Assembly: GCA_013824615.1 (NCBI GenBank)
Contig: PNOC01000005.1
Span: 1 to 64,000, forward strand
Source of the DNA: Thermodesulfovibrio sp.
GTDB lineage: Bacteria > Nitrospirota > Thermodesulfovibrionia > Thermodesulfovibrionales > UBA6898
Direction: 5' to 3'
Length of the DNA: 64,000 nucleotides
Part shown: one piece after another, positions 23,798 through 35,349 of the stretch
How the letters are laid out: each line of letters starts with the position of its first letter
Numbering within the stretch: the first letter of the stretch is position 1
Position numbers and translations under genes: made by a program
The notes under the pieces: generated by a model
Told to the model about the DNA's origin: nothing
The model's database searches: none
What the model saw: the letters and a program-made list of their open reading frames with translations, nothing else

Positions 23798-25837
23798 ATG
23801 ACTCATACCGTTCCAACAGAAATCATGAAAGAGATTGAAGGGCTCGTCAAGGAGCTCAATTATAACGCGTATCTTTACTATGTCCTCGATTCGCCAGTCA
23901 TGGCTGATGCCGACTATGACAAGTCCTACCGCAGGCTGAGAGACCTTGAAGAGCACTACCATTATATCCTGCCCGACTCTCCAACGCAGAGGGTCGGTGC
24001 ACCTGCACTTGAGAAGTTTGCCAAGGTGAAGCATGAAGAACCGATGCTCTCGCTCGACAACGCCTTCAGCCCGGACGAGCTCAGGGAATTCGACAAGCGA
24101 AACCGGAAGCTGCTCAGCCCTGATGACGTGCTTGAGTACACAGTCGAACCGAAATACGACGGCCTGGCCATGGAACTCATCTATATCGATGGTGTCCTGA
24201 CAAGCGCATCTACCAGGGGCGACGGATATGAGGGCGAAGACGTTACCAGGAACATAAGGACGATCAAGGCAATTCCCCTGAAGATAGAAAACAGCACAGT
24301 CCCGGCCCGTGTCGATATCCGAGGTGAAGTCTATATGCAGATCGCTGATTTTGAAGCGTTGAATCTCCAGCGTGCAAAAGACGGGGAGCCGCCCTTTGCA
24401 AACCCTCGCAACGCAGCCGCAGGTTCAATACGTCAGCTTGACCCGTCAATCACCGCCTCACGCAGGCTTCTCCTCGCATGCTACGGATTGGGATTTGCAA
24501 AAGGACTTTCACTGACCAGCCATGCAGAACTTATCAACTGGCTCAAACAGGCCCGCTTTCCGGTCCCTGCAGCTTTTGTCATGGCAAAAGACATCGAAGA
24601 AGTCATCAGCGCCGTCACCAACATCGAGATTGGACGTCAATCATTTCCTTTTGAGACAGATGGCGCAGTGGTAAAAGTAAATGCCTTCGCCTTGCAGCAG
24701 AAACTGGGAATGAAGACACGCGAACCCCGGTGGGCAACTGCTTACAAGTTCAAGGCCCATCAGGCCGCAACCCTCATCAGGGACATTCAGTCCAGTGTCG
24801 GCAGGACTGGGGTCATCACGCCTTTTGCCGTGTTTGAACCGGTACGAATCGGCGGGGTCACGGTCTCCCGCTCGACGCTTCATAACTGGGACGAAATCCA
24901 GCGGAAGGATATCAGGATCGGAGATACCGTCCTTGTTGAACGCGCAGGCGACGTCATTCCGCATGTCATTGCCGTGCTGACGGAAAAACGGACCGGCGCC
25001 GAACAGGTTGTTCCCCTCCCGGTTGTATGCCCGGCCTGCGGCGCAGGCGTTGTGCGCGAAGAAGGCGAAGTCGCTGTCCGCTGCATCTCGCTGCATTGCC
25101 CTGCTCAGGTGCAGGAAAAAATTATCCACTTCTCCTCCCGGGGCGGCATGGACATCGAGGGCCTGGGTGAGAAGAACGTCGAACTTTTCTATTCCCGAGG
25201 ACTGATAAAGCACTTTGAAGATATCTATAGACTCAAGAAAGAGGACCTTCTGGAGCTGCCCCGATTCGCGGAAAAATCAGCAGACAACCTGATCGCCGCC
25301 ATCGGGAAAAGCAAACAGGCCGCGCTTTCACGCTTCCTCTTCTCCATAGGGATACTGCATGTCGGTGAATATGCAGCAAAGGTCCTTGCCCGGAATTTCA
25401 GAAAACTGGAAGATCTCTACAACATATCTCCTGAAGAAATAATCACCATAAAGCAGATGGGCGACAAAATAGCTGGGTCGGTTTCAGCCTTTTTCAGTGA
25501 CCCGAAGAATATAGACCTTCTGAATTCGATGGTAAAGCTCGGAATAATAATAACCAACCCTGATTATGAGACTGAGAAAACCGCCGGACCGCTTGACGGA
25601 ATGACCTTCGTCATCACCGGCTCAATGCCGAAGCCCCGGAAAGAAATAGAGACCCTCATCGAAAAACACGGCGGCCACGCCGCCTCCGCAGTCTCAAAAA
25701 GTACCAGTTATCTCCTGACAGGCGATGACCCGGGATCGAAACTCGATAAGGCAAAGCAGCTCGGGGTAAAAGTGATATCATACGAGGAACTGCTCAAATT
25801 GATTGAAGATAAAGATAAACAGCCGAAGTTGTTTTGA
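23798..25837 (+). CDS. ligA: NAD-dependent DNA ligase
   Basis: Seals nicks in DNA during replication and repair, using NAD. 679 residues, full length. Domain Ia (YYVLDSPVMADADYD), adenylation site Lys119 in EPKYDGLAM, RGDGYEGEDVT, the OB fold, a four-cysteine zinc finger (CPACG...CISLHCPAQ), helix-hairpin-helix repeats (GGMDIEGLGEKN) and a C-terminal BRCT domain (about 600-679, GMTFVITGSMPKPRKE). The ATG at 23798 lacks a good ribosome binding site and an ATG at 23825 is an alternative; homology does not separate them. Confidence 0.96.
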   Translation: MTHTVPTEIMKEIEGLVKELNYNAYLYYVLDSPVMADADYDKSYRRLRDLEEHYHYILPDSPTQRVGAPALEKFAKVKHEEPMLSLDNAFSPDELREFDKRNRKLLSPDDVLEYTVEPKYDGLAMELIYIDGVLTSASTRGDGYEGEDVTRNIRTIKAIPLKIENSTVPARVDIRGEVYMQIADFEALNLQRAKDGEPPFANPRNAAAGSIRQLDPSITASRRLLLACYGLGFAKGLSLTSHAELINWLKQARFPVPAAFVMAKDIEEVISAVTNIEIGRQSFPFETDGAVVKVNAFALQQKLGMKTREPRWATAYKFKAHQAATLIRDIQSSVGRTGVITPFAVFEPVRIGGVTVSRSTLHNWDEIQRKDIRIGDTVLVERAGDVIPHVIAVLTEKRTGAEQVVPLPVVCPACGAGVVREEGEVAVRCISLHCPAQVQEKIIHFSSRGGMDIEGLGEKNVELFYSRGLIKHFEDIYRLKKEDLLELPRFAEKSADNLIAAIGKSKQAALSRFLFSIGILHVGEYAAKVLARNFRKLEDLYNISPEEIITIKQMGDKIAGSVSAFFSDPKNIDLLNSMVKLGIIITNPDYETEKTAGPLDGMTFVITGSMPKPRKEIETLIEKHGGHAASAVSKSTSYLLTGDDPGSKLDKAKQLGVKVISYEELLKLIEDKDKQPKLF

Positions 25838-26021
25838 CTGTTACCAGTGGGCCTCAATATCCTGATAGAACTACTGCCAGGCACTTACACCGACAAAACG
25901 GCGCCACACGCATTTCACCCATGGCCTTTATTTCCGAAAGAAACGAGGATAACGCGAATGCAACCCGTTTAACGGGTTGACAGACTGGTTGGAAGCTGAC
26001 ATCCGTCACACCTCAAGTTGT
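25838..26021. other. Non-coding stretch after ligA
   Basis: No gene was recognised here. It holds the 25961-25979 inverted repeat and leads into the toxin remnant on the minus strand. It marks the left side of a patch of small accessory genes. Confidence 0.4.
25961..25979. repeat. Perfect 9-bp inverted repeat
   Basis: CAACCCGTT and AACGGGTTG flank a single T. No T run follows, so it is not a standard terminator. It lies in the gap after ligA, near the toxin remnant. Confidence 0.5.
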
Positions 26022-26219
26022 TTAAGTTGGCAACGTCCCCCATTTCCCAGCGGATTTCTTACCTCCGAAATAACTTTCTGTTGCCTTTCTGCTCGGAATA
26101 ATAGTTTTCAGAAATAGTTCTTCCTCATCCTCAACATAAGGAATAAGATATGCATAATTATTTATTCCGATCACCATAATTCTCTGTTCCGGATATTTTT
26201 CTCTGACCCCACGAGCCCT
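26022..26219 (-). pseudogene. 5'-truncated BrnT-like toxin remnant
   Basis: Reading the minus strand from about 26219 gives some 65 codons ending at TAA 26022-26024. The peptide contains REKYPEQRIMVIGINNYAYL, then IPYVEDEEELFLKTIIPSRK and ATESYFGG. That pattern (KYPGQ..., YLVPYVE, LKTIIPSRKAT) is the C-terminal half of a common BrnT-like ribonuclease toxin family. The N-terminal half is missing: upstream the frame runs into the 3' end of the thioesterase gene with no suitable start. No antitoxin is seen after it. It is too short and start-less for standard gene finders. Family name is from memory of the motif. Confidence 0.6.
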
Positions 26220-26233
26220 TTTGAGGGGCGTGG

Positions 26234-26662
26234 TTATGTGAGTTTCTTGGTCGTCTTCTCTTTCATCTTTGAGTCGAACCTGTCCTTGATGATCACAAAA
26301 CGTTCATGTCTGCCCTTTGAGATCAAGTCAACGCCGTCATGTGCTTCGACTTCGAATACAAGTTTGCGGCCTTCGACTTCGACTAGCTTAACCTTTGCAG
26401 TAACGTCAAACCCCACTGGCGTTGCCGCGATGTGGCTTACGTCGATATGTGTACCAACAGTTTGTTCCTGCGGCCAATCCAGATGAGGATTGATCGCTTT
26501 GATGCAGGCCCACTCAAGAAAACCCACCATATATCCCGTTGCGAAGACTTCTGGCATCTCTTGAAACTCTGCCGCCTCGGGGTAGAGTGCCGAAACGGTC
26601 TTTGACTCAGGTATGCGAAATGTGAATTCTGACTCGATTCCAATCTTCAATGTTTCTTTCAT
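26234..26662 (-). CDS. FlK-like (fluoroacetyl-CoA type) hot-dog thioesterase
   Basis: 142 residues with strong resemblance to FlK of Streptomyces cattleya, which hydrolyses fluoroacetyl-CoA. The residues matching its catalytic set are present: Thr42 and Glu50 in FATGYMVGFLEW, and His77 in DVSHIAATPVG, with Arg121 in HERFVI. Shared stretches include YPEAAEF, PEVFATG and AHDGVD. The position of FlK Phe36, a gate for the fluorinated group, appears to be Met36. Many FlK relatives act on other small acyl-CoAs, so fluoroacetate resistance is only one option. It lies alone in an accessory patch with AAGGA before ATG 26662. Confidence 0.8.
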   Translation of the reverse strand: MKETLKIGIESEFTFRIPESKTVSALYPEAAEFQEMPEVFATGYMVGFLEWACIKAINPHLDWPQEQTVGTHIDVSHIAATPVGFDVTAKVKLVEVEGRKLVFEVEAHDGVDLISKGRHERFVIIKDRFDSKMKEKTTKKLT

Positions 26663-26692
26663 GTGTTCCTTCTTTCATATAACGTAATAAAT

Positions 26693-26753
26693 AACCGGGC
26701 TGGCGCGACCACCTTCGCAAACCAAAGCAGCGTTATCGCCAGCCAGTCGGGTT
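26693..26753. repeat. Imperfect inverted repeat between thioesterase and LprI-like genes
   Basis: GGCTGGCG (26698-26705) pairs with CGCCAGCC (26737-26744); AACCG outside pairs with CGGGTT with unpaired bases. ATAACG (26679-26684) also matches CGTTAT (26731-26736). The structure recalls integron attC sites but the core bases do not fit the consensus well. Confidence 0.45.
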
Positions 26754-26781
26754 GATTTGCGTGATTTGCATGTTCGGCGCT

Positions 26782-27186
26782 TTATTTCTGTTTGTATTGT
26801 TCTTTATAGAGTTGTTCAAGGTCATTGACTCTGCGCTCCGTCAGCAATACAAATGTTGTGTTGCGGATAAGCGGCTGAATACTGCCGCCGCGATAGAAGT
26901 CACCGTCAAATGTCACCTGCGCCGATCGATATTTTCTCCATGCCTGTTTGGCCTTCCGAAATAAAGCCAATGCCTCAGAGTCAAGTTTCTTCTCAATTTT
27001 CCTCTCGGATTTGAGCAGTTCTTTATCCCAATAATCTGCCAGTGCACCCGATGCCAAGTTCATGTCAGCTTGAGTTTGTGCCGAATCCAATGCCGCTTGG
27101 AGCTTTTTCAATTCATTTCGGTCTGCGGCCTGTGCTGGCCCTACGATAGAGACAAGAATTGTCAAATAAAGCAGTAATTTAATCAT
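26782..27186 (-). CDS. Secreted LprI-like (DUF1311) protein
   Basis: 134 residues with a clear signal peptide (1-21, ending AQA). The mature part is helical and ends with the pattern common in DUF1311/LprI proteins: FRKAKQAWRKYRSAQVTF, DGDFYRGGSIQPL and LTERRVNDLEQLY. In Mycobacterium LprI inhibits lysozyme; many homologues have no known function. Confidence in the family is moderate because the usual cysteines are lacking. It is the upstream member of the small accessory patch, with a 119-base gap to the thioesterase. Confidence 0.6.
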   Translation of the reverse strand: MIKLLLYLTILVSIVGPAQAADRNELKKLQAALDSAQTQADMNLASGALADYWDKELLKSERKIEKKLDSEALALFRKAKQAWRKYRSAQVTFDGDFYRGGSIQPLIRNTTFVLLTERRVNDLEQLYKEQYKQK

Positions 27187-27292
27187 TATTTATCTTCACA
27201 GAACATAATTACTATCCGATGGTCCCTTTACGCACGAATGTATCATATCAAGCCCGAGGATGACAGAAACAATAAATTGGGTTCACAAACCA

Positions 27293-29467
27293 TCATTTCC
27301 CGCCCCTTACTTCAAACCTCACCGAATCTACAACCACATTATTCTCATCCGCCAGGGCAAGAATATATCTCCCCTGTTGCGGCCTCCAGACAGCATCGGC
27401 CCTTGCCTCTCCCCAATATTCCCCGTTAAGCATCCAGTGAAGTCTGCCGTCTGCAACCCCAGCCTCAAAGAAGATGCGCTGATGATCATCAGGAATATCG
27501 GGGTCAATCGCTATTATTGAACCTTCCGCGGGATAGAGAATCCCGGGCCTTGCCTCAGACGACCTGGCCACAAGGGTGAGCGGTTCGGTGCCTTTATTAA
27601 ACAGCTCAAACCGCGGTACTTCAATATCATCGCCAAATTCAATCCTTTGACTGACAACACTCTCCGGCCTGCGCGGAGGTGTACCAGGACGGTTGTTCTG
27701 CAGCCGGTTCATGATCTCCAGCCAGACAGGGGCTGCGCCGGTAATACCGCTGACGTTCCACATCGGCCTGCCTGAAAAATTCCCAACCCAGACCCCAACG
27801 GTATAGCGGGCCGAATATCCGATGCACCAGTTGTCCCTCATGTCCTTGCTCGTCCCGGTCTTGACTGCAGACCAGAAGCGGGTGGCCAGGGGATTTTCGA
27901 GTCCAAAGGTCAGACTTCTGGCCTGCCGGTCAGAAAGAATGTCCGATATCAGGAAGGCGGTATCAGCGGAGAAAACAGGGCGTCCTTTTTTCTTTGTCTG
28001 GCCAGGCAGAAGCTGCAAGGGCGATCTGATGCCTCCGTTAGCCAGCGTCCGGTACGCATTCACCAATTCGCGGAGACTCACATCCACTGACCCCAACGCA
28101 GCCGAGGGGCCATAAAAGTCATCAGCTTCAAGCTGCTCAAAACCGAGCTCTCTGAGTTTTTCTATAAAGTCGTCAGAACCGGCAAGGCCGATTACCCTGA
28201 CGGCCGGTATATTCAGAGAAGAGGCCAGTGCCGTCCGGGCCGAGACGAGTCCCTTGAAATCGTGCTCGTAGTTTTCAGGCTTGTAGATCCCCTGTTCAGT
28301 CGGTATATCCAGCGGACTGTCATGTAATAGTGAGGCAGGGGTCAGGATCTTTTTTTCGAAGGCCAGCCCATATAAAAAAGGCTTGAGCGTCGAACCTGCC
28401 TGGCGCCTTGCTTCAACCCCATCGACAAACGGAGCAGGGGAACTGCTGCCGATATTGCCGACATAGGCAAGGATATCTCCGGTCTTATTTTCCACGACAA
28501 GGACTGCGCCGTCGGTAACATTTTGCGCCCTCACCAGTCCCACCTGGTGCCTGAGTGATTCAAGGGTAAACTGCTGGAGATCTGCATCGAGCGTGGAGCC
28601 TGAAACAGCGATTCCCTTCTTCAGGACTGCATGCGCCACATGGGGTGCATATGCTATGCGCTGCCGCACATGATAGACTCCGGTCAATGCCTTTTCTGCC
28701 GTTGCCCTGATAGTATGATCCTGAAGGGGGGCTCCTTCAGCCGCAAGCAGTGCGGCACGTCTGACAACATCGGCAACCGGGGCATTCGGTGCGCGTATCA
28801 AGGCAGCCAGGATAAACGCCTCTGCCGCATCAAGCCCGTGCGGATCTTTATCAAAAAGTCCTCTCGCTGCAGCAGACACTCCCTGCAACTCTCCTCTGAA
28901 AGTTATGAGATTCAGATAGGCCTCAAAGATCTCATTCTTGCTCCAACCCTTTTCAAGGTCCCGTGCCGCTGATATCTGGTTCCATTTCTGCGCATACGAT
29001 CTCTTGCGCTGTTTCGGCCTCAGGTCTTTATTGAGTATCGAGGCCAACTGCATGGTGATCGTACTGGCCCCGCGCGGTGAACGACTCACGACACCCTTTG
29101 CCGCGGCAGATCCGATAGCCATCCAATCGACCCCGGCATGCTGATAGAACCGCTTGTCCTCCGAATGCACCACAGCCCTGAGCAGCGCAGGCGAGATCCT
29201 GTCGATGCCGGTCCATTCAAGTCTCCTGCCAATCATATCGCGCCGGAGCTCGTGGATAACCGTCCCGTGCCGGTCGAGCAGAACCGCGTCCGAAGATTGG
29301 TAATTACTTTTCACGTCGTTAAATGAAGGCAGGGCAGAGGCAACAGAGGGGAGTGAAATGAAAACGAGAAAAATGATTCCCGACAAGCGGGCATACCCCC
29401 TTGCACGGGGCCAGCCAACACTCCTTTGCATCCAGGCAACTGGTGCGTCTGCGTTTACGTGAATCAT
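27293..29467 (-). CDS. pbpC: Penicillin-binding protein 1C
   Basis: Bifunctional peptidoglycan glycosyltransferase/transpeptidase of the PBP1C family, anchored in the inner membrane. 724 residues: transmembrane segment (about 28-46), GT51 domain with Glu103 in HSEDKRFYQH, RGASTITMQLA and the EAYLNL motif, transpeptidase with Ser359 (GSTLKPF), SSLN and Lys536 (KTGTS), and the C-terminal PBP1C domain (about 630-724). It follows the alpha-2-macroglobulin gene by 68 bases, the same pairing as in E. coli, and the pair is thought to repair the wall after breach of the outer membrane and trap invading proteases. Confidence 0.95.
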   Translation of the reverse strand: MIHVNADAPVAWMQRSVGWPRARGYARLSGIIFLVFISLPSVASALPSFNDVKSNYQSSDAVLLDRHGTVIHELRRDMIGRRLEWTGIDRISPALLRAVVHSEDKRFYQHAGVDWMAIGSAAAKGVVSRSPRGASTITMQLASILNKDLRPKQRKRSYAQKWNQISAARDLEKGWSKNEIFEAYLNLITFRGELQGVSAAARGLFDKDPHGLDAAEAFILAALIRAPNAPVADVVRRAALLAAEGAPLQDHTIRATAEKALTGVYHVRQRIAYAPHVAHAVLKKGIAVSGSTLDADLQQFTLESLRHQVGLVRAQNVTDGAVLVVENKTGDILAYVGNIGSSSPAPFVDGVEARRQAGSTLKPFLYGLAFEKKILTPASLLHDSPLDIPTEQGIYKPENYEHDFKGLVSARTALASSLNIPAVRVIGLAGSDDFIEKLRELGFEQLEADDFYGPSAALGSVDVSLRELVNAYRTLANGGIRSPLQLLPGQTKKKGRPVFSADTAFLISDILSDRQARSLTFGLENPLATRFWSAVKTGTSKDMRDNWCIGYSARYTVGVWVGNFSGRPMWNVSGITGAAPVWLEIMNRLQNNRPGTPPRRPESVVSQRIEFGDDIEVPRFELFNKGTEPLTLVARSSEARPGILYPAEGSIIAIDPDIPDDHQRIFFEAGVADGRLHWMLNGEYWGEARADAVWRPQQGRYILALADENNVVVDSVRFEVRGGK

Positions 29468-29535
29468 AATAAGATCATGTTGTCATTACAGAGTCTTTGA
29501 GGTCTTTCTGTCTTGCGCAATACACTATCACAGGT

Positions 29536-32500
29536 TTATTGGCCAACCTCCATCGCCTCGTTCGGAATCTCTCCGAAGGCCTCAGGAGCATACATCGCCT
29601 CGACCCTGGTAGACGGCAGGCGGAACGTCCCGCTGTTGTTTAATCGCACCGTGTACTCGGCAGTCCAGGACCCTTTGGGCACAAACTCATAATAAGACCT
29701 GAAGGCTTCGAAAGAGCGCTCCTCGAAGGCAGGCCAGACTGAGCGGGAATGCTGTTCCCCTGTTGTCATGATCTGTGAATCCCGGCCGAGGCCGGTGCCG
29801 AGGATCATTGAGCCTGCGGGGATCGGATCATTAAGCACAACCCAGGTCATGTCCGCCTGGGCCTCGACCTCCAGCCGCACCCGCAGAACATCGCCCTTTG
29901 TCCATATGCCAGGGGTCTTCTGCTCCACAGGGACCAGCGTCTTTTTTATCCGGTATCCGCTCGCAAAAGGCCCCTTCAGTGGAATTGCAGCAAGACTCTG
30001 GACCATTGCCCAGGGTCTCCCTGTACCGGCATGGTTGATGGTCATCCGCTCTCTGTCTTTCGGCCAGCCGAACTTCAGATCAGCTCCTGCTGCCTTCTCA
30101 GCCCAGTTTCTGTTTTTTGAACTATCCCCCAGCGTAACCGTGGTTAGACCGGTCACTGCCGTTGCCTCGAACTGCTTCGAAAATTTTTCGACTGCCAGCA
30201 CGCCCCAGGCATTCGCCGTGGTCAAGTCCCAGGAACCCCGGTGCTGCCGCCCCAGGGCCGCCCTGAGCAGTCTCGGCATATCCTGTTTCCAGTGTTCCAG
30301 CGGGAGCAGGGTAAGAATACTCTTTACCGCATTCAGGTCCGGGGAGACCATAAGCCACCATAACCGGTCCGATCTCTCGGTAGAAAATCCCAGAGTCGTC
30401 CCCTGGAAATTCATCCGGGATCTGAGCATCTGTTCTGCCTCTGTGATCTTTTTATCGCGGCCGGGAATTTCCTTCATCCGCAGCAGAAGGTCTGTCCAGT
30501 CGAGCAAAGCAGATGTCGGCCAGAGATTCGGCTCCAGGGAAATTGAGCCGAGCTGTTTGACCTCTGCCTTGCCGAGACGGGCAAGGGCTGCCAGCGCTGC
30601 CAGCTTTCTGATCGACAGGTCTGCCGCCGGCAGGGATGAATATCTGATAACCCGGCCTTCAACGAAGCCCTTCAGGCCCTCCTCCATGCGGAAGAGGAGA
30701 TCCTCAGGAATCACCCAGCCTGCCTCATGTGCGATCGAAACGATATAGGCGGTCAGCGCGTCACTGCCGTGAGTCAGCAAAGGAAAATATTTCACGAGCC
30801 CGTCGCCGTCAAGGTGAGCAGGCAGTTCGGAGATAACCGTTTTCCAGAGGGCCTCGTCACGGAGACTGACTGCCCGGGAGACCTTCTGTTCCATGCAGGT
30901 GTAGGGATATTTTTTCATATACAGGGTCACGCCGGAGAGGCTGTCGGCAATCCTCGGCCTGAGCGAAACAGAGATGCCCCCTTTCCCGGAGAGTGCAGCC
31001 TGAGGTTTTTCGAGGTCCAGCTGATACCGCCCGTCGACCTGGGTGATCGTTGCCTGAAACGTCCGGACCGGCACAGTCTCTGCAACCCGCTGCTTCATGC
31101 GTATGATGTCGCGGCCATCGCCACCCTTTTCAGAGGCAGTAACCTCATAGGTAAGGTTCGCTGCCCCCACAGGCACATTGATTTTCCAGCCGATCTCCTG
31201 CGCCCCGCCTGCAGCAAGAGTCAGCATCAACGGGTCGAGCTCCTTCTTCTCAATGCCCTGCAGGAGGGCCTTCACCTCAATGTCCATGCTCCTGTTCGAT
31301 GCATTCCGGACAGTGAACCCGGAGAAAAGACTGTCCCCTTCACGGACGACCGGCGGCAGGGAGGAGAGCAGCATAAGGTCCTGAGCAGTCCGGATGCTGG
31401 TCTGCCCTGTGCCGAAGAGCTCTGCCCCTCCGGTGGCAACGGCAACAATCCTGAATCCGGTAAGGGAATCATTCAGCGGCACCTCCACCTCTGCCTCGCC
31501 CTTTTCATTCAGGGCCACTTTGGCCTTCCAGAAAAGCAGGGTATCGAAAAGCTCCCGCGTGGTCTGCCTTCCTCCGCCGCCGCCCTGGGGCTGCGCCTTG
31601 AGACCGTAGTGTCTCTTGCCTACCACCTGCATCTGGGCGGTAGCAGTCCGTACCCGGTAGTCCCGCCGGCCCATCATCCCTTCGATAAGATTCCAGCTTT
31701 TGTTTGACATCAGCTCGAGAAGACCCTCGTCGATTGCTGCAAGCGCAACCTCACTTCCTTTCGGCAGTTTTTTCCCGTTCGCACGCTTTACCTGCACCCT
31801 TACCCTCGCTTTATCGCGGACCTTGTAGACCTGCCTGTCGGCCACAACCTCCACCTTCAGCTCAAAGGCCTTCCTGCCTACCTGTATTTCTCCAAGGCCG
31901 AGCCTGAAAGCAGGCTTCCCGAGGTCCACCAGGGCCGTTGGCTGAACACCGGCCACTCTGCCGCGAACCACCAGGGCCGAGACAAAGATATTCGGCGCAT
32001 AGGCCGCCCTGACAGGAACCTCTATTACCGGATGCTTCCCGGACAATTTCCTGACATAGGTATCCACGATCCCCTCCCGCTCTATCGAGATTAGCGCAGT
32101 CGCCTCTCTGAAGGGCATCCTGACCTGGAATTTAGCGGTTTCACCCGGCTCATATCTCTTTTTTTCGGGAATGAGGTCAATCCTGTCATGGTCCGCGACA
32201 TCGAACCACCAGTCCCCCTTACCCACGATCCAGACATCCCTGTGGACCCTTGACGCATTCCCGGCATCGTCAGCAGCCTCAGCCTGCAGAATCACATTGC
32301 CGGATACCGGAGATTTGGCTTCGCATATCAGCAGTCCCCGGCTGTCTGTTTTTCCTTCACATATTCTGCCGGTTTTTTTTGTCTCGGAAGTATGTTCATA
32401 AGCATAAAAACCCCCTACCAGCCGCTTACGGTGTGAATATGCTTTTTTCTGAAAGAGATCAACCTTTACAGGCCGTTCGGATACAGGCCTGCCGTCGAGA

Positions 32501-35349
32501 TCCACCACCACCACATGAAATCTGAAATCATCCTTTGATGCTGCCCATGAATCCGGCTTAATGCCTACGAGGACCCTGGCAGGCCATAAAGGTATCCGCC
32601 GGGAGACGGTCTGAGTCTCTCCGTTGGGGTCTCTGAATTCAAGTTCTGCCAGGATGTCATGAGGCTGCTCAACCTCCGGCAGCCCGGAAAGCTTCGTCCT
32701 CAGGCCGCCACTACCGTCAAGAATCAATTCAGTGGTCTGGGTCTTCGGGCGCAGACTTCTTTCAGCATCTTCCCCCTCATGCGCACGGGACCGCCTGGTC
32801 TTCTCCTCCCTGACCGCTCCGTTCGTAAAGACAAAATCCTCGTAGTCGGCAAAATTGATATATTTCGGCATAGTCTGACTGCGCAGCTTGACTGCTGCAT
32901 TCTTCACCCCGCCGCCGGATAGATATGAGAGCTGGATATCGACCTCCGCCTCGGTGACTTTTACCAGTGCCTCCTTCTGCGGCAGGAGCACCGCCTTCAT
33001 AAGCGGCACTCTGAATTCCTCAACCCTGAAAGATCCTGACTCCCAGCCTTCCGGATAGTCACCTTCCTCTTTCTTTCTGTTTTTCTTGCTATTGCCCTTT
33101 TTTCTGAGGAGCGTAATAGAATAAGAGCCGAGACTGGCCTCCTTCGGGATAACCCACTGACTCTCTGCAGCACCTTTCTTATCCCACACCAGAAGCATTT
33201 CATACTGCTGATCGCTCCCTGCATGCCTGATCAATACAGAACCAGGAAGCGTGCCTGCCGAAGCAAGGGATAGCCCGGAGGTCGTGTGTCGTCTGAACAG
33301 ATGCTTCATATGCACGGTATCTCCGGCCCTCAGGAGGCTCCGGTCAAGTATCGTGTGTGCAACCACCGGAGCGTTTTCTCCATTATCCGGCATATTGTAG
33401 CGCCACGGTTCTATTCCTTCATCCCAACCCGAATGCACAAACGTCATATCTGCTCCGGACGTGGCAAATACAAACAATCCACGGTTTATGCCCCTGAGCG
33501 CCTGCGTGGCCTCCTCGTAGTTAACGCCTGAACTGCAGGCCGGCAGATCACGTTCCGAAGGGAGCTGTTTCAGGATTCTCGCTATGCCGTCCTGATCTGT
33601 TTTTCCACGCCAGAGCTGTTTGCCGTTACAGTCTCTGAGTGAGACCGCGGCCTCTTTCACCGGTTCGCCCTTGTCAAGGGTCGTCACCCAGACAAGCGAA
33701 GATTCCATGCCCCATTTAAAATGAGCCGAAAGATTAGTGACCAGGGCAGCGGTCTGCACAAACATCGGTGCCTGCTTGCCAAGCAGAGATCGCCCGAGCA
33801 GCTGACTCTCCATCTCAACCACGTAGAGACCCGGTCCCTTCAGCGGAAGGCCGATAACTTCAAAGGCCTGCGCACCTCCTGGCTTAGGGACAGAAAAGGG
33901 CTTCAGGTCTTTTTCCCGGCTGAAAATGCTCTTCTCACGTTTTGCCGCCGCCACCGCCTTCAGCCATTCTATAAGCTGCTCTTCGCTGCCCATTCTGAGC
34001 TTATGCAGCCGCCCCTTGAGCCCGTCTACCATATCCTGATTCTTCCCTTTGAGGGACTCCGGGAGTACAGAACCAATAGCTTCACCGACCGCGCGCGTCT
34101 TGTCCAGCACCGCTTCCCGCGTCTTGTCCACGGCACCTTCCACCGGCTTCTCCACCCGGTGCATTCTTGTCCTGACCTCGGGCTCAATATTGCGAATGGT
34201 TACCGGAAGTGTTGCATCTCCCTTCAGCTCGATGATTCCAAAACGGGCGGCAAACTTTGCCAGGGGAGGATTGGCAGCAGTTTTAACGGTCAAAGGAAAA
34301 TTGTTCCTGTTCGCCAGAGGACGCCCGGCCTCGTCCTTCACCTCTTTGGGCAGTTCGAGCGTAAAGACCCCGTTTTCAGGGAAAGGTCCCTTGAAGACAA
34401 CGGCAGAGACGTAATTGTCGTCCTCTGCAGGCAGCTCATCTCCGCCCTCTTCGCCTTCATCGCCACGTGCGGGTTTCGCTGCCTTGTAGTTTTTGTTTCC
34501 ACCTCTCAGTTGTATTTTTCTTGCGACCTCCCAAGGTATGGGGGAAGAGAAATTAAGCCGCAACGGCAGCACCGGAATACAGGCAGAGCGGGCATTTTCA
34601 CGGCTGCAGCTGAATTCAGCAGTAAAGGGGGCCCGTGCCCTGAATTCGATTCTCCGGTCCACGGCAGTCATCACGCCCCCGGTCGTCGCAACCCCCTTGC
34701 CCCATACAAGGTGAACCTTTGCCTTCGCCGGAAATCTCTGCGTACACTGCAGCAGCGTGACCGGCCGGTCCTTCAAAAACCGGTACTGCTGAAGAATTTC
34801 TGCCCGCACCGGGTCTTTTACGATACGTATGCCGACCCGCTCCATCACGCCGTCAATCTCACAGGCGACATGGGCCAGAAGAGACGCTTCATCAGCCTCA
34901 GCATCGAGCTCCAGGACAAATATCTGGTCTTCGTCGATCTCCTCGGATGCCTCGCGGGGAAAAGCCCGCAGAACAGCAGGCCCCCCGGTAGAAAAAGAAT
35001 AGGTCTGCGGGCCCGCCAGGGTGAGGCCTGAAACTGACCGCAGATCTTTTTTCAGGGTGAATTCGCAGGAGATTCCGGCAGGAAGGTCACGGTCAAAATC
35101 ATATACCCAGTTACTGCTGTCCACCCATCTGCCCCGGCCTTTTTCAGGACAGGCCGCTACAAAGGGGTCTGAGATACCGGGGTCACCGAAGGCGACCATA
35201 GGTACAGAAAACCTCGCAGAAACCTGCCGAACATTCTTTATCGTTCCCTGAGGTGAAAAAAAATTAACCGAGGCATACTCCTCAGCAAAACCGGCAGAGG
35301 CAAGCAGCAGGAATGCTATGGCAGCACAGGAGATGGTACTATATTTCAT
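29536..35349 (-). CDS. Bacterial alpha-2-macroglobulin with thioester
   Basis: Large periplasmic protease trap. 1937 residues with a signal peptide (1-22). It has N-terminal macroglobulin/Ig-like domains, MG2-type sheets, a bait-like segment near RQTTRELFDTLLFW, and a thioester domain with CMEQ at 1485-1488, so the covalent trap chemistry should be possible. No lipobox cysteine is seen after the signal peptide, unlike E. coli YfhM, and the protein is some 280 residues longer than that homologue. A charged helical insert (about 395-480) accounts for part of this. GGAGGG precedes ATG. It is co-directional with pbpC. Confidence 0.93.
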   Translation of the reverse strand: MKYSTISCAAIAFLLLASAGFAEEYASVNFFSPQGTIKNVRQVSARFSVPMVAFGDPGISDPFVAACPEKGRGRWVDSSNWVYDFDRDLPAGISCEFTLKKDLRSVSGLTLAGPQTYSFSTGGPAVLRAFPREASEEIDEDQIFVLELDAEADEASLLAHVACEIDGVMERVGIRIVKDPVRAEILQQYRFLKDRPVTLLQCTQRFPAKAKVHLVWGKGVATTGGVMTAVDRRIEFRARAPFTAEFSCSRENARSACIPVLPLRLNFSSPIPWEVARKIQLRGGNKNYKAAKPARGDEGEEGGDELPAEDDNYVSAVVFKGPFPENGVFTLELPKEVKDEAGRPLANRNNFPLTVKTAANPPLAKFAARFGIIELKGDATLPVTIRNIEPEVRTRMHRVEKPVEGAVDKTREAVLDKTRAVGEAIGSVLPESLKGKNQDMVDGLKGRLHKLRMGSEEQLIEWLKAVAAAKREKSIFSREKDLKPFSVPKPGGAQAFEVIGLPLKGPGLYVVEMESQLLGRSLLGKQAPMFVQTAALVTNLSAHFKWGMESSLVWVTTLDKGEPVKEAAVSLRDCNGKQLWRGKTDQDGIARILKQLPSERDLPACSSGVNYEEATQALRGINRGLFVFATSGADMTFVHSGWDEGIEPWRYNMPDNGENAPVVAHTILDRSLLRAGDTVHMKHLFRRHTTSGLSLASAGTLPGSVLIRHAGSDQQYEMLLVWDKKGAAESQWVIPKEASLGSYSITLLRKKGNSKKNRKKEEGDYPEGWESGSFRVEEFRVPLMKAVLLPQKEALVKVTEAEVDIQLSYLSGGGVKNAAVKLRSQTMPKYINFADYEDFVFTNGAVREEKTRRSRAHEGEDAERSLRPKTQTTELILDGSGGLRTKLSGLPEVEQPHDILAELEFRDPNGETQTVSRRIPLWPARVLVGIKPDSWAASKDDFRFHVVVVDLDGRPVSERPVKVDLFQKKAYSHRKRLVGGFYAYEHTSETKKTGRICEGKTDSRGLLICEAKSPVSGNVILQAEAADDAGNASRVHRDVWIVGKGDWWFDVADHDRIDLIPEKKRYEPGETAKFQVRMPFREATALISIEREGIVDTYVRKLSGKHPVIEVPVRAAYAPNIFVSALVVRGRVAGVQPTALVDLGKPAFRLGLGEIQVGRKAFELKVEVVADRQVYKVRDKARVRVQVKRANGKKLPKGSEVALAAIDEGLLELMSNKSWNLIEGMMGRRDYRVRTATAQMQVVGKRHYGLKAQPQGGGGGRQTTRELFDTLLFWKAKVALNEKGEAEVEVPLNDSLTGFRIVAVATGGAELFGTGQTSIRTAQDLMLLSSLPPVVREGDSLFSGFTVRNASNRSMDIEVKALLQGIEKKELDPLMLTLAAGGAQEIGWKINVPVGAANLTYEVTASEKGGDGRDIIRMKQRVAETVPVRTFQATITQVDGRYQLDLEKPQAALSGKGGISVSLRPRIADSLSGVTLYMKKYPYTCMEQKVSRAVSLRDEALWKTVISELPAHLDGDGLVKYFPLLTHGSDALTAYIVSIAHEAGWVIPEDLLFRMEEGLKGFVEGRVIRYSSLPAADLSIRKLAALAALARLGKAEVKQLGSISLEPNLWPTSALLDWTDLLLRMKEIPGRDKKITEAEQMLRSRMNFQGTTLGFSTERSDRLWWLMVSPDLNAVKSILTLLPLEHWKQDMPRLLRAALGRQHRGSWDLTTANAWGVLAVEKFSKQFEATAVTGLTTVTLGDSSKNRNWAEKAAGADLKFGWPKDRERMTINHAGTGRPWAMVQSLAAIPLKGPFASGYRIKKTLVPVEQKTPGIWTKGDVLRVRLEVEAQADMTWVVLNDPIPAGSMILGTGLGRDSQIMTTGEQHSRSVWPAFEERSFEAFRSYYEFVPKGSWTAEYTVRLNNSGTFRLPSTRVEAMYAPEAFGEIPNEAMEVGQ

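What the first reader, a model, noticed from the sequence alone, without database searches (positions are those of the whole stretch)
26234..26662. FlK-like thioesterase in an accessory patch
The sequence keeps the catalytic Thr42, Glu50, His77 and Arg121 of the fluoroacetyl-CoA thioesterase FlK, but the gate residue appears to be Met36 rather than Phe. It lies with a toxin remnant and an LprI-like gene, in a region without operon links. It could remove a small toxic acyl-CoA.
Basis: partly seen in the sequence, partly recalled or inferred. Interest (0 to 1): 0.55.

Follow-up and report, generated by a model that had tools for sequence, protein, structure and literature searches.

The report
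FlK-type thioesterase with methionine gate
A bacterium from the Nitrospirota carries a small, probably acquired enzyme closely related to FlK, the enzyme that protects a fluoroacetate-making Streptomyces from its own poison, and the methionine that looked odd in it turns out to be the normal residue of the family, with FlK's phenylalanine the exception.

Summary
The gene at 26234-26662 (-) is real: 142 aa, about 51% identical to Streptomyces cattleya FlK, with a ribosome-binding site and low amino-acid divergence among relatives. Thr42, Glu50, His77 and Arg121 match FlK, and residue 36 is Met where FlK has Phe. A confident model superposes on FlK crystal structures at 1.0-1.3 A rmsd. The Met is not a peculiarity. 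Of 113 distinct homologues with FlK's lid loop, 111 have Met36; only FlK has Phe and one Streptomyces has Val. FlK falls among Met36 proteins in the tree, though an AU test does not exclude FlK branching outside them (p 0.42). Plasmid pUO1's homologue, next to its fluoroacetate dehalogenase and CrcB, is also Met36. The patch is an insertion-like 1.46-kb stretch between ligA and pbpC, which abut in one same-genus genome; it holds a truncated BrnT-like toxin gene and an LprI-like gene. Relatives sit at many different sites; 17 of 111 loci have a divergent LysR gene. Best reading: an accessory thioesterase that destroys a small, probably alpha-substituted, acetyl-CoA-like poison. The substrate is not shown.

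The parts
26234..26662 (-). FlK-type hotdog thioesterase gene, 142 aa
26667..26672 (-). Shine-Dalgarno-like GAAGGA before the ATG
   Evidence: sequence; by inspection
26555..26557 (-). codon of Met36 (FlK Phe36 position, lid)
26564..26566 (-). codon of Phe33 (lid residue shared with FlK)
26537..26539 (-). codon of Thr42 (triad)
26513..26515 (-). codon of Glu50 (triad)
26432..26434 (-). codon of His77 (FlK His76, triad)
26300..26302 (-). codon of Arg121 (FlK Arg120)
26055..26204 (-). C-terminal 50 residues of a BrnT-like toxin gene; first ~42 codons absent
26782..27186 (-). LprI-like gene, 134 aa (PF07007)
25838..27292 (.). patch between ligA (23798-25837 +) and pbpC (27293-29467 -), absent in one same-genus genome where the two genes abut

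Best explanation
It is an acyl-CoA thioesterase of the lid-bearing FlK subfamily (hotdog fold). Thr42, Glu50 and His77 hydrolyse the thioester, Arg121 and Gly70 sit in the active site as in FlK, and a lid (Val23, Leu26, Tyr27, Phe33, Met36) closes a very small acyl pocket. It most likely removes a small, probably alpha-substituted (halo- or otherwise activated) acetyl-CoA analogue before citrate synthase or other enzymes use it. It is a horizontally moving, stand-alone protective gene rather than part of a pathway. Shown: homology, residue equivalence, modelled fold and lid, purifying selection, accessory and variable location. Inferred: catalysis, the small substrate, the protective role.
For: Closest solved relatives are all FlK entries: sequence E 3e-40, Foldseek 50-53% identity and rmsd 1.0-1.3, Z 20-21. 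In 113 lid-bearing homologues (FlK and the window included) the catalytic and lid positions are nearly fixed: H77 113, E50 112, R121 112 plus one truncated row, T42 103 Thr/10 Ser, V23 112, L26 106, F33 108, M36 111. Met36 is not an artefact of retrieval: 45 of 46 in the set from whole-genome and plasmid searches, 65 of 65 in the pattern-search set. The Met36 homologue on pUO1 lies between a methyltransferase and an alpha/beta hydrolase, with crcB nearby. pUO1 is the plasmid of fluoroacetate dehalogenase dehH1 (PMC5485738, passages), and the same four-gene set is described for Caballeronia S22 (PMC11812338, passages). In one close clade member (L029, Desulfobulbaceae) a gene 42% identical to that methyltransferase directly follows the thioesterase. 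Accessory nature: 12 of 41 relatives and 16 of 295 genomes of the phylum carry it; no gene other than a LysR regulator recurs beside it widely; GC 0.473 against 0.522-0.548 for ligA and pbpC. A LysR gene sits divergently upstream in 17 of 111 loci, which fits an inducible single-enzyme function.
Against: No assay. No haloacetate gene lies beside the window copy, and the own-genome match to the pUO1 dehalogenase is only 34% over 123 residues. The methyltransferase link is 1 locus among those scanned, and that methyltransferase has no match to the trans-aconitate methyltransferase models while the pUO1 one scores far below their cut-offs. LysR is not next to the window copy. Carriers named are largely groundwater, sediment and freshwater bacteria, for which no organofluorine exposure is known to me.
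Confidence: 0.5

Rival explanations
1. A general short-chain acyl-CoA (acetyl-/propionyl-CoA) thioesterase used for CoA recycling; the fluorine selectivity of FlK came only with Phe36.
For: Met36 is the common state and FlK is the exception; carriers have no fluorine genes beside the gene; FlK sits among Met36 proteins in the tree.
Against: Patchy distribution, changing sites, and a dedicated divergent regulator in 17 of 111 loci look more like a conditional protective gene than housekeeping; the Met36 homologue on pUO1 lies in a fluoroacetate cluster.
Confidence: 0.3
2. A true fluoroacetyl-CoA resistance enzyme, like FlK, in an organism that meets fluoroacetate.
For: Same triad and lid as FlK; pUO1 homologue with Met36 beside dehH1 and crcB.
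Against: No convincing dehalogenase of that type in the own genome, no crcB or methyltransferase like pUO1's beside the gene, no fluoride riboswitch in the 13 kb scanned around it; F36 absent.
Confidence: 0.15
3. A decaying passenger gene with no present use, carried in on a mobile patch.
For: Neighbour is a truncated toxin gene; the patch is AT-rich; some homologues in the bacterial family carry in-frame stops (L087, L088).
Against: Intact frame, ribosome-binding site, all catalytic residues kept, dN 0.08-0.10 with dS saturated.
Confidence: 0.05

Closest known systems
FlK, fluoroacetyl-CoA thioesterase of Streptomyces cattleya (PDB 3kx8, 3p2q, 3kv7)
   Same: Hotdog fold, 51% identity, triad T-E-H, Arg, Gly and the lid with V23, L26, Y27, F33.
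   Different: Met instead of Phe at 36, one extra residue after position 61, not in a fluorometabolite cluster in the window; substrate unknown.
thioesterase-family protein WP_011137957.1 of plasmid pUO1, Delftia acidovorans
   Same: Lid-bearing, F33 and M36, triad; 47.5% identity.
   Different: Sits in the fluoroacetate dehalogenase cluster; belongs to a separate deep branch.
LysR-linked lid-bearing homologues (clade B, Nitrospirota and deltaproteobacterial groups)
   Same: Lid, M36, triad.
   Different: About 52-63% identical to the window protein, most with a divergent LysR gene upstream.
TTHA0967 of Thermus thermophilus (2cwz)
   Same: Related by sequence and fold, Z 18.1, 27% identity.
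   Different: Much more distant (E 3.1e-08); deposited as a thioesterase family protein.

Membership tests
Pfam PF22636 (FlK) | score above the curated cut-off | tested here: met
   115.4 bits, cut-off 27
lid-bearing FlK subfamily (named here) | lid loop 22-36 with V23, L26, F33 before the triad Thr/Ser | tested here: met
   alignments; lid helices 23-26 and 31-34 in the model
FlK, fluoroacetyl-CoA-specific thioesterase | triad Thr42-Glu50-His76 and Arg120 | tested here: met
   T42, E50, H77, R121 aligned
FlK, fluoroacetyl-CoA-specific thioesterase | Phe36 gate | tested here: not met
   Met36; Met in 111 of 113 lid-bearing homologues
FlK, fluoroacetyl-CoA-specific thioesterase | about 10^6-fold preference for fluoroacetyl-CoA over acetyl-CoA (PMC5485738) | not testable with these tools
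   needs kinetics
FlK, fluoroacetyl-CoA-specific thioesterase | located with a fluorinase gene | not tested
   no fluorinase search of the whole genome was made; neighbours in the window are ligA, pbpC, LprI
fluoroacetate-degradation cluster (methyltransferase, thioesterase, dehalogenase, CrcB) | the three partner genes beside the thioesterase | tested here: not met
   pUO1 partner proteins have no match in the window-genome loci L001, L076, L100, L166

The most novel reading that the evidence does not exclude
The Met36 lid-bearing proteins are a broad, mobile, partly LysR-controlled family of haloacetyl-CoA (or similar alpha-substituted acetyl-CoA) resistance enzymes in anaerobes and chemolithotrophs, and FlK is a late offshoot in which a single Met-to-Phe change at the gate tuned an older enzyme to fluorine.
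Probability: 0.25. Interest if true: 0.65.

Novelty: new member of a known kind. Interest (0 to 1): 0.45.

Why it matters
FlK is a textbook case of fluorine recognition, studied through its Phe36 gate. If almost all of its lid-bearing relatives carry Met there, including one in a known fluoroacetate plasmid, then how fluorine selectivity arose becomes directly testable with natural Met36 proteins and a single-residue swap. It would also mean that many uncultured groundwater and sediment bacteria hold a protective enzyme for an unidentified small acyl-CoA poison.

Tried and rejected
Met36 as a special feature of this gene: rejected, since it is the family state. A conserved operon partner: clustering of neighbours in the loci gave only LysR as a widely recurring neighbour; the other recurrent clusters were antisense shadows of the gene itself, loci of closely related genomes, or generic families scattered at varying distances. 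A fluoroacetate dehalogenase in carriers: of 37 genomes (carriers and non-carriers mixed) only G309 and G690 had full-length matches of 42-43%, both carriers and neither beside the gene; the rest were weaker, mostly partial alpha/beta-hydrolase hits. Fluoride riboswitch or another known RNA element near the genes: none in the window stretch; in 40 loci only tRNAs, tRNA-Sec and a group II intron; pUO1 gave none either, so this test has no positive control. A defence-system role: no PADLOC match for the thioesterase. A firm claim that Phe36 is derived: support 98/94 places FlK within the lid clade apart from the pUO1 branch, but forcing FlK outside all other lid rows is not rejected (p-AU 0.418). 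Phage or plasmid carriage of close relatives: only matches under 60% identity. Papers on FlK itself (JBC 2010; PNAS 2012 and 2018) are not held, so residue roles of FlK beyond the PDB titles are recalled. The searches for FlK papers listed no paper whose title or shown abstract describes a Met36 subfamily; I read passages of six of the listed papers only.

Sampling limits: the pattern search used peptides of the window protein, one of which spans residue 36; this is why the count was repeated on the other sources. Actinobacterial genomes could not be surveyed, so Phe36 in other fluorometabolite producers was not checked. In one search, 154 loci gave, with the window and FlK added and identical rows merged, 148 distinct proteins, of which 35 were set aside as lacking the full lid; a few of those are fragments or frames with stops (L087, L088, L089, L132). 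L068 (truncated) was dropped from the tree.

Full report
What is there. The minus-strand ORF 26662-26234 encodes 142 aa and begins four bases after a GAAGGA ribosome-binding site. Against all PDB sequences the best hits are the FlK entries of Streptomyces cattleya (E 3.2e-40, residues 1-137), with TTHA0967 far behind (3.1e-08). Pfam gives PF22636 FlK at 115.4 bits, cut-off 27. The own genome (3.6 Mb, 96 contigs) holds one copy and no other member of the family.

Residues. The FlK alignment pairs T42/T42, E50/E50, G70/G69, H77/H76, R121/R120, F33/F33 and M36/F36 (window/FlK); the window has one extra residue near position 62. That these are FlK's catalytic, lid and gate residues is recalled from the FlK literature, which is not held here; PDB titles confirm that T42 and F36 were studied by mutation. 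The AlphaFold2 model (28 sequences, pLDDT 96.3, pTM 0.87) superposes on FlK chains with rmsd 1.0-1.3 in Foldseek and Z 20-21, rmsd 1.0-1.4, in the second aligner, including the F36A mutant 3p3f.

Met36 is the rule. In the 74 homologous loci plus the window, M36 is found in 68 of 75; the other seven lack the lid. After adding loci from whole-genome searches of the relatives and phylum, of two further phyla centred on the genomes of L011 and L010, and plasmids, 148 distinct proteins were aligned. 113 have the full lid, and position 36 is Met in 111, Phe only in FlK and Val only in Streptomyces sp. BHT-5-2. E50 is kept in 112, H77 in 113, R121 in 112 with one truncated row, T42 is Thr in 103 and Ser in 10. 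Splitting by source, Met36 is 65 of 65 in the pattern-search set and 45 of 46 in the rest.

Tree. With 112 lid-bearing rows and 8 lidless ones, FlK lies inside the lid clade and inside a 108-row group that excludes the pUO1 branch (SH-aLRT 97 and 95), and state 36 changes twice. A careful tree of 55 rows repeats this (98/94), but an AU test does not reject FlK outside all other lid rows (p 0.418). So Phe36 as a derived state is favoured, not proven. The window protein belongs to a 67-row clade (99) from Nitrospirota, Methylomirabilota, Acidobacteriota, Thermodesulfobacteriota, Pseudomonadota and others, and within it to a 10-row group of Nitrospirota loci (97).

Link to fluoroacetate. Plasmid pUO1 carries a lid-bearing, Met36 homologue between a class I methyltransferase and an alpha/beta hydrolase, with crcB close by. 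A review states that pUO1 encodes fluoroacetate dehalogenase dehH1 (PMC5485738, passages); that the alpha/beta hydrolase here is dehH1 is my inference from its family and place. A genome announcement describes the same methyltransferase-thioesterase-dehalogenase-CrcB set in Caballeronia S22 and assigns the thioesterase to fluoroacetyl-CoA, citing FlK work (PMC11812338, passages). In L029 (Desulfobulbaceae) a protein 42% identical to the pUO1 methyltransferase is encoded right after a clade-A thioesterase. This is a single locus, and these methyltransferases score weakly (pUO1) or not at all (L029) against the trans-aconitate methyltransferase models. None of the pUO1 partners lies beside the window gene, and the best own-genome match to the dehalogenase is partial, 34% over 123 residues.

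Context. In the window the order on the minus strand is pbpC, LprI-like gene, thioesterase, toxin remnant, with ligA converging from the left. In same-genus genome G001 the ligA match ends at 1489 and the pbpC match ends at 1501 of L167, so the two genes abut and the 1.46-kb patch is absent. In G002 and G004 ligA is not within 1.5 kb of pbpC, so only one of three comparisons is informative, and loss in G001 is not excluded. The patch is AT-rich: thioesterase 0.473 and LprI 0.444 GC, against ligA 0.522 and pbpC 0.548. The toxin remnant matches the last 50 of 92 residues of BrnT-like proteins (90-92% identity to L219 and L220); the first 42 or so codons are missing and the break falls within 30 bp of the thioesterase stop. 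The intact protein scores 29.4 bits against PF04365 BrnT, below its cut-off of 34.5. In ten loci of relatives no close homologue of another window gene lies beside the thioesterase, except in L005, which shares one gene (73% over 707 aa) that in the window is about 19 kb away; the other matches were weak paralogues.

Distribution and regulation. Carriers are 12 of 41 relatives, 16 of 295 of the phylum, 26 of 398 of the phylum of G306 and 67 of 247 of the phylum of G307; the last two counts include lidless relatives. Among 111 loci with a callable thioesterase, 17 have a LysR-family gene divergently upstream within 500 bp. Of these, by comparison, 15 belong to clade B, one is a clade-A member (L186) and one is L187. 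The regulator resembles the CysB/Cbl and selenium-associated LysR models without reaching a cut-off. The outer neighbours differ in the ten loci read, so regulator plus enzyme is the conserved unit there. The window copy has no such neighbour.

Mechanism and verdict. Most likely the protein hydrolyses a small acyl-CoA with FlK's triad under a hydrophobic lid, and protects the cell from an acetyl-CoA-like poison. The fold, the residues and the accessory nature are shown by computation; catalysis, substrate and purpose are inferred. The finding is a good member of a known enzyme family.

Noticed in passing
window 26055-26204 (-): Truncated BrnT-like toxin gene whose intact 92-aa form exists in relatives (G013, G014); the break lies next to the thioesterase stop codon.
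   Followed up: yes
window 26782-27186 (-): LprI-like gene (PF07007) with no match in any locus from another genome fetched by then.
   Followed up: partly
L029 3395-4153 (+): Class I methyltransferase 42% identical to the pUO1 methyltransferase directly after a clade-A thioesterase, in a stretch with an RHS-like ORF and a large integrase-like ORF (labels by eye).
   Followed up: partly
L083 1937-2030 (-) and L085 2468-2561 (-): Selenocysteine tRNA genes beside two LysR-linked thioesterases; a LysR of this kind resembles selenium-associated LysR models below cut-off.
   Followed up: no
L196 4533-5432 (-) and 16 other loci: LysR gene divergently transcribed from lid-bearing thioesterases, conserved while outer neighbours change.
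   Followed up: partly
window 26238-26486 (+): Open antisense frame across the thioesterase gene recurs in dozens of loci; probably a codon-use shadow of a conserved protein.
   Followed up: no
window 27293-35349 (-): pbpC preceded by a large alpha-2-macroglobulin-like gene (1937 aa, label by eye); the pair is kept in G001, G002 and G004.
   Followed up: no
   Followed up: partly
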